In this document: positions 11,612-46,247 of the stretch, in pieces
Position numbering within the stretch: the stretch's first letter is position 1
How the letters are laid out: each line of letters begins with the position of its first letter
Assembly (NCBI GenBank): GCA_003021015.1
Contig: PXRK01000040.1
Location: 1-60,357 of the forward strand
Reading direction: 5' to 3'
From: Halobacteriales archaeon QS_4_66_20
GTDB lineage: Archaea; Halobacteriota; Halobacteria; Halobacteriales; Haloarculaceae
Length of the DNA stretch: 60,357 nucleotides
Translations under genes and position numbers: made by a program
The notes under the pieces: model-generated
What the model was told of the DNA's origin: nothing
The model's database searches: none
What the model saw: only the letters and a program-made list of their open reading frames with translations

Positions 11612-12823
11612 CTACACCAGGCCTTTGCCCTGGAGTTCGCGGGCGATGATGTTCTTCTGGATCTCGGTGGTTCCCTCGTAGATCTGGGTGATCTTCGCGT
11701 CGCGGTAGAGGCGTTCGACATCGAAGTCGTCGACGTAGCCGGCACCGCCGTGGATCTGGACCGCCTCGTCGGCCACGTCGACGGCGATCCGGGAGCCGTA
11801 CTCCTTTGCCATCGAGGCCAGCATCGTCAGGTCGTCGTCGTTGCCGGTGTCGTCACACCAGGCCGATTTGTAGGTCAGCAGGCGGGCGGCCTCGATCTTG
11901 GTGAACATGTCCGAGAGCTTGTGCTGGATCGCCTGGAACTCGCCGATCGGCTGGCCGAACTGCTCGCGCTCCTCGGCGTATTCGAGGGCGCGCTCGGCGG
12001 CGCCGCGGGCGATGCCGACGCCCTGGGCGGCGACGGCGGTCCGCGTCTCGTCGAAGAACTGCATCTGCTGGAGGAAGCCCGCGCCGCGGTGGCCCACGAG
12101 GTTCTCCTCGGGCACGCGCACGTCGTCGAGGATCAACTCGGCGGTGTCGGAGGCGCGGATGCCCAGCTTGCCGGTGATCTTCTCGGCGCTGAACCCGTCG
12201 CGGTCCGTCTCGACGATGATCTGGGAAAAGCCGTTGTACCGCCCCTCCGCGTCGGGGTCGGTCTCGCATAGCATCACCACGTAGTCCGCGACCGTGCCGT
12301 TGGTGATCCACATCTTGTTGCCGTTGATCACCCACTCGTCGCCGTCCTGGTTCGCCTCCGGCGAATCACGGCTCGGTGAGCTCTGCTCGGCGGTGTCCTT
12401 CTCGGCGCGGGTCGCGATCGAGGAGACATCCGACCCGGCGTGGGGTTCGCTGATCGCTGCCCCGGTAATCGCCTCGCCCCGCGCGACGGGTTCGAGGAAC
12501 TCCTCTTTTTGCTCCTCGCTGCCGTGGCCGACGATGGCCTCCGTCCCGAACGACGTCGAGAGCACCGACAGCCCGATCCCGGGGTCGGCGGCGAACAGCT
12601 CCTCGGTGATGATCATCATGTCCAGCGTCGAGTAGCCGGCGCCGCCGTACTCGATGGGGATCGCGGCCCCGGTCAGCCCCATCTCCGCGGCCCTGTCGAC
12701 GACCTCGTGAGGGTACTTCTCCTCGCGGTCGTACTCGCTTGCGACCGGCTTGATCTCGTTCTCGGCGAACTTCCGCACCTCGTCTCTGATCTGTTTCTGT
12801 TCCGCTGAGAGCCCAAACTCCAT
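11612..12823 (-). CDS. Acyl-CoA dehydrogenase
   Basis: A 403-aa flavoenzyme (the usual length is about 380) starting at ATG 12821-12823 (MEFGLSAEQKQIRDEVRKF). The expected blocks are all visible: GAAISEPHAGSDVSS, KMWITNG, LGIRASDT, the REQFGQPI helix, QIHGGAGY, and near the C-terminus YEGTTEIQ carrying the catalytic Glu of the short/medium-chain type. It catalyses the first, FAD-dependent oxidation of acyl-CoA; the electron acceptor would be ETF, not encoded here. An extra loop at about residues 148-165 is encoded by small palindromes (12351-12388). It diverges from the fused dehydrogenase/hydratase at 12944, so the two probably share a control region. Confidence 0.9.
   Translation of the reverse strand: MEFGLSAEQKQIRDEVRKFAENEIKPVASEYDREEKYPHEVVDRAAEMGLTGAAIPIEYGGAGYSTLDMMIITEELFAADPGIGLSVLSTSFGTEAIVGHGSEEQKEEFLEPVARGEAITGAAISEPHAGSDVSSIATRAEKDTAEQSSPSRDSPEANQDGDEWVINGNKMWITNGTVADYVVMLCETDPDAEGRYNGFSQIIVETDRDGFSAEKITGKLGIRASDTAELILDDVRVPEENLVGHRGAGFLQQMQFFDETRTAVAAQGVGIARGAAERALEYAEEREQFGQPIGEFQAIQHKLSDMFTKIEAARLLTYKSAWCDDTGNDDDLTMLASMAKEYGSRIAVDVADEAVQIHGGAGYVDDFDVERLYRDAKITQIYEGTTEIQKNIIARELQGKGLV
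12351..12388. repeat. Palindromic loop-coding insertion in acyl-CoA dehydrogenase
   Basis: A perfect hairpin TTCGCC-TCC-GGCGAA (12351-12365) is followed by two smaller ones (TCAC/GTGA and GAGC/GCTC). It encodes an extra Ser/Asp/Glu-rich loop absent from typical family members. See also 21513-21557, at the corresponding place in the second dehydrogenase. Confidence 0.5.
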
Positions 12824-12943
12824 GTGTGGGTCCAACGCGGGAACGCTGATAACCGTTTTCGCACGACTGGAACGTTTACGATAGTTTCTGGGCGCTGAAA
12901 AGACAACGTTGAAATCTCGCGCGGGTGTGGTCCCAGACGAATC

Positions 12944-45308: not shown

Positions 45309-45332
45309 CCTCGGTCCGTTAGCGTGCCGTAG

Positions 45333-46247
45333 ATGGACCAGGAGTACGGCCTGCTCGACACCGGCGAGGCGCCGCCGGGCGACGAGTGGGAGGAGATCGA
45401 CTACACGGACACCGAGGCGGACCGGATCGCCCGCGAGCGCGACCGGGAGTTCGACGAGTTCCGCAAGCGGATCAAGGACGCCGACCAGTTCAAGGTCGAG
45501 GCGTCGGTGTTCGACGACGCGACCTACGGCGCGCTGTACAAGCTGGTCCAGGACGGCCACCTCGACGCGTTCGGCGGCCCCATCTCGACGGGCAAGGAGG
45601 CCAACGTGTACACGGCGCTGGCTGGCGACCGCGAGGCGCGTCGCGCCTCGGAACAGCCGAGCGGTGACGGGGAGGAGCCGCGAGGCCACGAGGTGGCAGT
45701 CAAAATCTACCGGATCAACGCCTCCGATTTCACGGAGATGGGCGAGTACCTGGAGGGCGACCCCCGGTTCGAGCGCATCCAGAACGACAAGAAGGCGATC
45801 GTCATGGCCTGGGTCCGCAAGGAGTTCGCCAACCTCCGGCGCGCGGTCGAGGCCGGCGTCCGCGTCCCCGAACCGGTCGCGGTCGAGCGCAACGTTCTCG
45901 TGATGGAGTACCTCGGCACCGCGGAAGGCCGCGCCAAGCGCCTGGCCGAAGTCCACGTCGAGAACCCCCGGACTGCCTATGAGGTCGTCCGCGAGTACAT
46001 GACCCGGCTGTACGACGCCGGCATCGTCCACGGCGACCTCTCGGAGTACAACGTCGTCGTCGACGAGTCACAGCTGTACGTCATCGACGTCGGCCAGGCC
46101 GTGACGATCCACCACCCCAACAGCGAGGAGTTCCTCGAACGGGACTGCTACAACGTCGCGAACTTCTTCGCCCGCCAGGGCGTCGACACCAGCGAGGGCG
46201 ACCTGCTGGCGTACATCCACGACCACACTGCGCCGCTCGAGGAGTAA
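45333..46247 (+). CDS. rio1: RIO1-type serine protein kinase
   Basis: A 304-aa atypical kinase/ATPase involved in 30S maturation. The RIO pattern is clear: ISTGKEANVYTAL (flexible P-loop), VAVKIYRINASDF with the catalytic Lys, RKEFANLRRA, IVHGDLSEYNVVV (catalytic loop) and YVIDVGQAV with the metal-binding Asp. A charged insertion (GDREARRASEQPSGDGEEPR) follows the P-loop; its DNA contains a 9-bp-arm palindrome (45632-45650). It stands alone here, without the eIF1A and KH-protein neighbours common in archaea. Confidence 0.94.
   Translation: MDQEYGLLDTGEAPPGDEWEEIDYTDTEADRIARERDREFDEFRKRIKDADQFKVEASVFDDATYGALYKLVQDGHLDAFGGPISTGKEANVYTALAGDREARRASEQPSGDGEEPRGHEVAVKIYRINASDFTEMGEYLEGDPRFERIQNDKKAIVMAWVRKEFANLRRAVEAGVRVPEPVAVERNVLVMEYLGTAEGRAKRLAEVHVENPRTAYEVVREYMTRLYDAGIVHGDLSEYNVVVDESQLYVIDVGQAVTIHHPNSEEFLERDCYNVANFFARQGVDTSEGDLLAYIHDHTAPLEE
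45632..45650. repeat. Palindromic loop insertion in rio1
   Basis: CGAGGCGCG-T-CGCGCCTCG, perfect 9-bp arms. It encodes REARRASE in a loop between the P-loop and the lysine strand of the kinase. Confidence 0.6.

What the first reader, a model, noticed from the sequence alone, without database searches (positions are those of the whole stretch)
12351..45650. In-frame palindromic insertions create extra surface loops in several conserved enzymes
Perfect small hairpins, usually 6-bp arms with a 3-nt loop, lie exactly in family-atypical loops of at least five proteins: acyl-CoA dehydrogenase 1 (TTCGCC-TCC-GGCGAA), dehydrogenase 2 (CCGAGG-AGA-CCTCGG and an 11-bp arm), biotin carboxylase (GGCGGC-GAA-GCCGCC), carboxyltransferase (CCGAGC-AGA-GCTCGG), Kae1 (CGGACC-GCT-GGTCCG; CAACAGGC-GCA-GCCTGTTG; CGACGAGC-TTC-GCTCGTCG) and RIO1 (9-bp arms). 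The encoded peptides are Ser/Glu/Asp/Ala-rich and sit between conserved blocks. The nearest known parallel is the Rickettsia palindromic elements, which insert in frame in protein genes. I know of no such description for haloarchaea. The Cry-DASH insertion also contains short palindromes (GGCGGA-A-TCCGCC).
Basis: partly seen in the sequence, partly recalled or inferred. Interest (0 to 1): 0.85.

Follow-up and report, generated by a model that had tools for sequence, protein, structure and literature searches.

The report
Haloarchaeal in-frame double-hairpin insertion elements
Genes for several conserved enzymes of a salt-loving archaeon carry short, palindromic DNA inserts that are predicted to add small extra loops to the proteins, and related inserts sit in one reading frame in many unrelated haloarchaeal genes, so they likely spread as tiny mobile elements.

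Summary
All eight quoted hairpins are present; seven of them and the RIO1 hairpin lie in seven inserts in six genes that most relatives lack, with a step of exactly 17 residues in ACAD1 and ACAD2. Fifteen inserts of this genome hold 8 triloop hairpins against 0.78 expected; six inserts from outside the window show no excess, but 88 inserts of other haloarchaea do (14 against 2.5). Coding DNA at large is near chance.

The inserts fall with at least two dispersed families of about 40-60 nt, usually two consecutive hairpins. Family A ('AEQSSA') sits in 13 protein families, 18 of 25 hits in an ORF of one frame; family B ('PASEASG') sits in nine and occurs in 90 of 292 genomes. Stems covary (0/500 shuffles). 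A Kae1 insert is shared at 41 of 42 nt with Natronococcus, while three named Halovenus lack it.

Best reading: elements that work like Rickettsia palindromic elements, but shorter, two-hairpin, with palindromes kept by matching changes. How they move is not shown.

The parts
12347..12397 (-). 17-codon insert in acyl-CoA dehydrogenase 1 (DTAEQSSPSRDSPEANQ), family A; HP1 GCCGAGC-AGA-GCTCACC (partly decayed), second hairpin TTCGCC-GGA-GGCGAA
   Evidence: present in G017 and G006, absent in the 24 other relatives aligned; 13 nt shared with the CT insert
21506..21556 (+). 17-codon insert in acyl-CoA dehydrogenase 2 (DSAEETSADPAEATASA) at the homologous site; GCCGAGG-AGA-CCTCGGC and CCGCAGAAGCC-AC-GGCTTCTGCGG in tandem
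   Evidence: present in G017 and G029 of 17 relatives; HP1 reads as a compensated variant of the family A HP1
23131..23178 (+). 16-codon insert in biotin carboxylase (DSGASETHQNGGGEAA), GGCGGC-GAA-GCCGCC; not assigned to family A or B
   Evidence: present in G017 and G006; GACAGC on both sides
24500..24544 (+). 15-codon insert in carboxyltransferase (NSEQSSAGSQTQSGN), family A, HP1 CCGAGC-AGA-GCTCGG, HP2 GCCAGAC-CCA-GTCCGGC with one mismatch
   Evidence: same peptide core in a Peptidase_S9 gene (L392), and in CT-like genes of L398 and L212
33780..33821 (-). Kae1-Bud32 site 2 insert (GGPASGASSDQRSG), family B, shortened; CGGACC-AGC-GGTCCG
   Evidence: by a regular expression, PASEASG-like inserts at the site in 12 of the 80 other Kae1 sequences
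34242..34289 (-). Kae1-Bud32 site 1 double hairpin CGACGAGC-GAA-GCTCGTCG + CAACAGGC-TGC-GCCTGTTG
   Evidence: 41 of 42 nt identical to Natronococcus pandeyae (L073), absent in the three named Halovenus aligned at the site
45630..45686 (+). 19-codon insert in RIO1 (REARRASEQPSGDGEEPRG) with CGAGGCGCG-T-CGCGCCTCG; not assigned to family A or B

Best explanation
The extra loops come from in-frame, palindromic DNA inserts of about 42-57 nt, several of which (ACAD1, ACAD2, CT, Kae1) fall with two-hairpin families that recur in one reading frame in many unrelated haloarchaeal genes, and they likely arose by insertion of small mobile elements that work like Rickettsia palindromic elements. Shown: insert borders, palindromes, dispersal in 13 (family A) and nine (family B) protein families, one reading frame among the copies scored as coding, covarying stems, and one insert shared across families in an otherwise diverged gene. 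Inferred: each unit is copied to new sites as single-stranded DNA that folds into hairpins (by a transposase in trans or by strand switching at the fork), survives only where the frame is kept and the Ser/Glu/Gln/Gly-rich peptide is tolerated in a surface loop, moves between species with ordinary haloarchaeal gene exchange, and keeps its palindromes because a mutation in one arm is followed by the matching change in the other (fold-back copying or structural selection). Predicted: the inserts are translated and nearly neutral for the enzymes.
For: Triloop hairpins in inserts: 8 against 0.78 in this genome, 14 of 88 inserts against 2.5 in other haloarchaea. Family A: 25 exact hits of a 15-nt HP1 pattern in 23 of 292 genomes; 13 are coding by local score, all in the frame that reads EQSS, none in another, and Pfam finds named genes in that frame for 5 more; hosts are SDR, Peptidase_S9, ACADs, CT, tRNA endonuclease, P-type ATPase, THDPS, ETF, asparaginase, amylase, a Hel308-type helicase (name recalled), PCNA and iPGM. 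HP2 with arms of 7 bp or more follows in 16 of 25 (null 2.8%). Covariation score 0.283 against 0.118 shuffled (0/500) and 0.076-0.105 slid. Family B: 90 of 292 genomes, 3 hits for the reversed pattern; hosts Kae1, UvrA, AMP-binding ligase, ETF-alpha, histidine kinases, UDG, aIF2-alpha, argininosuccinate synthase and a Lum_binding protein (riboflavin synthase type); 21 of 49 copies coding by the local score, all in one frame. Kae1 site 1: 9 of 391 genomes, all nine in Kae1 at that site, 41 of 42 nt identical to L073 while the gene is 0.73; in eight such genes the insert has the highest synonymous identity of 517 windows (0.906 against 0.684 for the rest). A copy not used in training was found by the covariance model in a third ACAD of this genome (L287, E 0.0037).
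Against: No insertion event was seen within a species and no transposase was tied to the elements: at ten Y1_Tnp/TnpB loci of this genome the best model match is 21.9 bits with a 5-bp HP1 (E 0.0058 for those 27 kb; a match of equal score has E 0.34). There is no constant target duplication (GAC in ACAD1 and ACAD2, GACAGC in BC, none clear in CT). BC and RIO1 are not assigned to either family. Six inserts outside the window show no hairpin excess. The pattern CCGAGCARAGCTCGG is little more common than its reversal (25 against about 18 hits; in this genome with up to 2 mismatches 28 against 20), though the reversal is itself a hairpin; 7 of the 25 copies were not placed in a gene. Two of seven HP2 pairs do not pair above shuffles on their own (P 0.21 and 0.17). 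Twenty-eight of 49 family B copies score as non-coding, some of them inside named genes. Kae1 site 1 is known at one site only, so it speaks for transfer, not transposition; four of 413 windows of 48 nt elsewhere in that gene also reach 0.95 or more. The four window copies were in the model's training set. Translation and surface position rest on alignment only.
Confidence: 0.72

Rival explanations
1. No mobile element: fold-back strand switching at the replication fork makes palindromic duplications of host sequence in loops that tolerate them, and goes on correcting imperfect arms. One arm is host codons, the other their reverse complement.
For: In histidine kinases the codons NAVEHG form the left arm and AVEH is repeated after the insert, with different but matching arms (GTTGAGC/GCTCAAC, GTGGAAC/GTTCCAC, GTGGAGC/GCTCCAC). 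At Kae1 site 1 the right arm of HP2 overlaps the host codons PVD, and G055 shows a matching change in both arms. Flanking codons are repeated at ACAD1, ACAD2 and BC.
Against: Family A and B units of about 40 nt recur in unrelated genes and genera, which needs copying from one place to another. Only 3 of 23 kinase-type motifs carried such a unit.
Confidence: 0.2
2. The hairpins are functional RNA or DNA structures kept by selection (for example mRNA processing or translation pausing) and spread by homologous recombination of gene segments.
For: Highest synonymous identity of the gene at Kae1 site 1; covarying stems; some copies lie just 3' of a gene (L399, L400).
Against: Patchy presence, with most orthologues lacking the same insert; hosts of no common function; decayed copies are tolerated.
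Confidence: 0.1
3. Ordinary acidic surface-loop insertions of haloarchaea; the palindromes follow from GC-rich codon usage.
For: Hairpins in coding DNA at large are close to codon shuffles; six inserts of this genome outside the window show no hairpin excess; 5 of 15 inserts have no hairpin.
Against: Synonymous back-translation of the same peptides gives about a tenth or a sixth (other species) of the triloop hairpins; covariation across copies.
Confidence: 0.04

Closest known systems
Rickettsia palindromic elements (RPE) and the Wolbachia coding palindromes
   Same: Dispersed palindromic units, some between genes, some fused in frame in conserved protein genes (PMC2229807 and PMC2996958, passages seen).
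   Different: RPEs are 105-146 bp with a long stem-loop; these are about 40-60 nt with two short, mostly three-base-loop hairpins. RPEs are reported to lose repeat identity over time (PMC6649704, passage), whereas here stems covary. No sequence comparison with RPEs was made.
[quoted passage not shown]
   Same: Named beside RPEs as in-frame coding palindromes, in an archaeon (PMC2996958, passage; reference list of PMC2229807; the original was not looked up).
   Different: Details could not be compared; a methanogen, not a haloarchaeon.
PATEs and terminal-only 52-bp IS605-derived elements of Haloquadratum
   Same: Short haloarchaeal elements made of near-terminal palindromes, no target duplication (PMC3119063, 12 of 30 passages seen).
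   Different: The passages seen do not place them in frame in conserved genes; no firm link to IS605-type loci was found here.
Coding palindromes in Nematomorpha mitochondrial genes
   Same: Palindromes inside functional protein genes, gained and lost, arms kept matched (PMC6649704, passages).
   Different: Arms up to 142 bp, mitochondrial; whether they are dispersed copies of one unit was not read.
Double-hairpin elements of Allomyces mitochondrial DNA (recalled)
   Same: Two short hairpins in tandem as one mobile unit.
   Different: Recalled only; fungal mitochondria.

Membership tests
Rickettsia palindromic elements | Dispersed repeat in unrelated genes and between genes | tested here: met
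Rickettsia palindromic elements | In frame in conserved protein genes, in one frame | tested here: met
   copies scored as coding: 13 of 13 (A) and 21 of 21 (B) in one frame
Rickettsia palindromic elements | Length 105-146 bp, long stem-loop | tested here: not met
   two hairpins in about 40-60 nt; size of RPE from PMC2229807
Rickettsia palindromic elements | Sequence kinship with known RPE families | not tested
   no RPE sequence was fetched; filed as working like, not as a member
Rickettsia palindromic elements | Insert is translated and the enzyme works | not testable with these tools
   no expression data
PATE / IS605-derived elements | Palindromes resemble IS605-type ends | tested here: inconclusive
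   covariance model on ten Y1_Tnp/TnpB loci of this genome: best 21.9 bits, E 0.0058
PATE / IS605-derived elements | No target duplication | tested here: inconclusive
   GAC or GACAGC repeats at three sites, none clear at CT
Methanocaldococcus palindromic elements | Sequence and structure of the published elements | not tested
   known here only from citations

The most novel reading that the evidence does not exclude
Haloarchaea as a class host circulating double-hairpin elements that write themselves into the coding sequence of core genes in one fixed frame, cross family borders, and restore their palindromes after mutation by fold-back copying, so that the nucleic-acid structure outlives the peptide it encodes. 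They would be a steady source of new surface loops in haloarchaeal proteins.
Probability: 0.4. Interest if true: 0.9.

Novelty: new variant of a known kind. Interest (0 to 1): 0.77.

Why it matters
In-frame palindromic elements are on record for Rickettsia, Wolbachia and one methanogen. A case spread through the haloarchaea, some of which can be manipulated genetically (Haloferax, recalled), makes testable how selfish DNA can live inside genes, how proteins gain loops, and whether palindromes are restored by copying or by selection. It also warns annotators: haloarchaeal loops that read EQSSAGS, PASEASG or DERSSS may be insert-derived and misleading for function or phylogeny.

Tried and rejected
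Hairpin counts as such: not evidence, since coding DNA of the genome is only 18% above codon shuffles. Double hairpins by geometry alone (arms >=7): 4 against 0, 1, 1, 0, 1 in five shuffles over 399 genes, two of the four being known inserts; too weak to scan a genome with. K-mer enrichment brought up other repeats and was not used. The reversed pattern as a null for CCGAGCARAGCTCGG is poor because a reversed hairpin is again a hairpin; the HP2 test was used instead. An IS605 origin was looked for and not established. A structure prediction for ACAD1 could not be had, so surface position is inferred from alignments. A regular expression failed and was mended; arm indices were wrong, so only its motif counts and printed sequences are used. 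Orthologue pairs were limited: 78 of 399 genes had one in the part of G002 held; there, extra segments of 6 residues or more were 11 in G000 and 1 in G002.
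Full report
The window is contig C40 of a 2.89-Mb haloarchaeal genome assembly. Its nearest named relatives by Kae1 include Halovenus species and the assembly SW_7_65_23. G017 has a contig of the same length as PXSQ01000027.1 (SW_7_65_23) and G002 one of the same length as the Halovenus salina chromosome. 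Pfam names the hosts: two acyl-CoA dehydrogenases, biotin carboxylase, carboxyltransferase, Kae1 (TsaD) fused to a kinase domain with a weak Kdo match (the name Bud32 is recalled), and RIO1.

The observation. All quoted hairpins are present. Aligned with orthologues, they lie in inserts with sharp borders. In ACAD1 the segment between two conserved blocks is 28 residues in window, G017 and G006 and 11 in the 24 other relatives; in ACAD2 it is 26 against 9, also a step of 17, at the homologous site. G029, of another family, shares the ACAD2 insert; G025, also of another family, shares the CT insert in a longer form whose DNA reads as a row of four hairpins. RIO1 is shared with G002.

Is it chance? 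Fifteen inserts of this genome were tested: eleven from alignment with G002 and four (three in Kae1, RIO1) with borders set by hand. With synonymous back-translation by the genome's own codon usage, triloop hairpins with arms of 6 bp or more number 8 against 0.78; hairpins with arms of 8 bp or more and any loop of 0-8 number 5 against 0.6 (P 0.0005). Five inserts have none. Since the window was chosen for its hairpins, the test was split: the eleven give 5 against 0.65, but the six outside the window give 1 against 0.31, which is no excess. The freer sample is other species: 88 distinct inserts outside the window's clade, in the same gene families, carry a triloop hairpin with arms of at least 6, 7 or 8 bp in 14, 10 and 7 cases against 2.5, 1.1 and 0.3. 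All 102 inserts with loops 2-5 give 10 with arms of 8 bp or more against 1.0, the 930 control segments 12 against 5.4. In the genome's coding DNA hairpins are mildly above codon shuffles, 1908 against 1620 over 399 genes and loops 0-8.

Dispersed families. A scan of 292 class genomes for CCGAGCARAGCTCGG gave 25 places in 23 genomes, against about 18 for the reversed pattern, which is also a hairpin. By local coding score 13 are coding, all in the frame GAG-CAR-AGC-TCG, none in another; Pfam finds named genes in that frame at 5 more; 7 were not placed in a gene. The encoded peptide is mostly A-E-Q-S-S-A-[GS]. Hosts belong to thirteen protein families. The Peptidase_S9 copy (L392) reads EQSSAGSQTQSGDG, the window's CT copy EQSSAGSQTQSGND. 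Five ACAD copies (L394, L395, L396, L409, L410) sit at the site used in the window's ACAD1. The pattern covers only HP1; a second hairpin with its own stem follows, with arms of 7 bp or more within 36 nt in 16 of 25 (null 2.8%). The second family came from CCCGCGAGCGAAGCGAGTGGG with up to 1 mismatch, in 90 of 292 genomes with up to nine copies, against 3 hits for the reversed pattern. In held loci 49 matches of a looser pattern were read: 21 are coding by the local score, all in the frame PASEASG, none in another; of the 28 others some are within genes named by Pfam. Kae1 site 2 of the window reads as a shortened member. Some copies between genes have locus-specific but complementary outer arms, and in 80 named loci 9 of 33 occurrences of GAGCGAAGCGA are flanked directly by complementary arms of 5 nt or more.

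Stems covary. On 28 family A-like copies (25 from the scan, plus ACAD1, ACAD2 and Kae1 site 1 of the window) aligned without gaps, 79.8% of cells pair against 69.5% in shuffles, and the covariation score is 0.283 against 0.118 (0 of 500 for both); sliding the partner by 1-3 columns gives 0.076-0.105. Nine of the 15 pairs (the two outer pairs of HP1 and the seven of HP2) lie outside the search pattern, so the pattern does not force this; HP2 pairs in 63.3% of cells at its fixed position. Taken singly on the 25 copies, two of the seven HP2 pairs are not above shuffles. ACAD2 reads as a compensated variant (GAGG-AGA-CCTC for GAGC-AGA-GCTC), at the price of Gln to Glu and Ser to Thr. In family B the second hairpin reads GGAAGAC..GTCTTCC, GTCGGAC..GTCCGAC, GGCAGAC..GTCTGCC or CGTCGGACG-GAC-CGTCCGACG in different hosts. 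The peptide changes while the palindrome stays.

Movement between lineages. The Kae1 site 1 double hairpin was sought in 391 genomes with up to 2 mismatches: 9 hits, all in Kae1 at the same site, one in this genome, seven in family f7 and one in f4. That f7 is Natrialbaceae is inferred from the kinship with named Natronococcus and Natrialbaceae loci. Window and Natronococcus pandeyae (L073) agree in 41 of 42 nt of the insert, while the gene agrees at 0.73 and the flanks at 0.73-0.81; three named Halovenus species lack the insert. Conserved blocks of the gene come close: 4 of 413 other 48-nt windows reach 0.95 or more, the best 0.958. In seven f7 genes and L073 the insert has the highest synonymous identity of all windows of its length (0.906 against 0.684 for the rest; 516 others, none as high). 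Loops vary (GAA, GGA, GAT, GCG), stems hardly do. Partly decayed forms of this insert are in Kae1 of L050, L079, L085 and L101.

A covariance model built from the 28 copies found, in 460 kb of this genome, the four window copies (training set) and two others below E 0.01: a third ACAD with the insert at the same site (L287, E 0.0037) and a histidine kinase with three tandem units of the AVEHGSTSRQPPADD kind (L294, E 0.0084); the EthD-domain insert came at 0.16. In 1.2 Mb of G002 nothing was better than 0.27. In the kinases the host's own codons NAVEHG are the left arm of HP1, and AVEH is repeated after each unit, which hints at fold-back copying. One more gene of this genome, an AICARFT/formyltransferase (L294), has an insert with CGGGGTCT-CAC-AGACCCCG.

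Mechanism. Copies in unrelated genes require copying from place to place; in-frame survival follows from selection on the host protein; matched arms require either structural selection or correction between arms. Template switching between inverted repeats is a described source of arm homogenisation (PMC8604942, start of abstract in the listing; PMC6649704, passages). No transposase was linked. I commit to a mobile, RPE-like element, with fold-back copying as the likely keeper of palindromes; the route of movement is open.

Known or new. No listed title in the searches describes such elements for haloarchaea; some searches listed only part of their results, and most subscription papers are not held. 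RPEs, Wolbachia palindromes and Methanocaldococcus elements are the nearest kin in behaviour. The haloarchaeal units are shorter than RPEs, have two hairpins, and covary, whereas RPEs were reported to lose repeat identity. Hence a new variant of a known kind.

Noticed in passing
L294:6518-8809 (+), L286 near 19876 (-), L070: Histidine-kinase-type genes with a unit after the NAVEHG motif (three tandem units in L294, AVEHGSTSRQPPADD) whose first hairpin uses host codons as one arm and differs between copies with matching changes.
   Followed up: partly
L089:2356, L096:2487, L104:1268: A UvrA gene (Pfam for L089; the other two by peptide context) carries a family B double hairpin (PASEASGTTSDE..ESDG).
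   Followed up: partly
L386:1240-1552 (-); G093, G138, G246: Tandem or paired family B hairpin cores at spacings of about 52-93 nt, scored as non-coding in L386.
   Followed up: no
L399, L400, L412 near 1500: Family A-like double hairpins at the 3' end of isocitrate/isopropylmalate dehydrogenase genes (Pfam for L399 and L400), with a second hairpin unlike the others.
   Followed up: partly
Ham1-family gene of L048, L041, L037, L075 and Kae1 of L079: A further recurring insert peptide, SPNERAGSEATRE-like, in two unrelated genes; a possible third family.
   Followed up: partly
L044 Kae1 (10001-11519): Kae1 of SW_7_65_23 lacks the region around site 2 in the local alignment; deletion or assembly fault not settled.
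   Followed up: no
window:35051-35961: Tandem repeat of period 120 (7.5 copies), of beta-propeller look (recalled).
   Followed up: no
window:58212-58224: Cry-DASH palindrome GGCGGA-A-TCCGCC lies in a photolyase gene (57532-59139); not checked for an insert.
   Followed up: no
own-genome sample (window, L279-L298): 11-mers such as TGATTGTTGTG and ACAATCACTAT are strongly over-represented; source repeat not identified.
   Followed up: no
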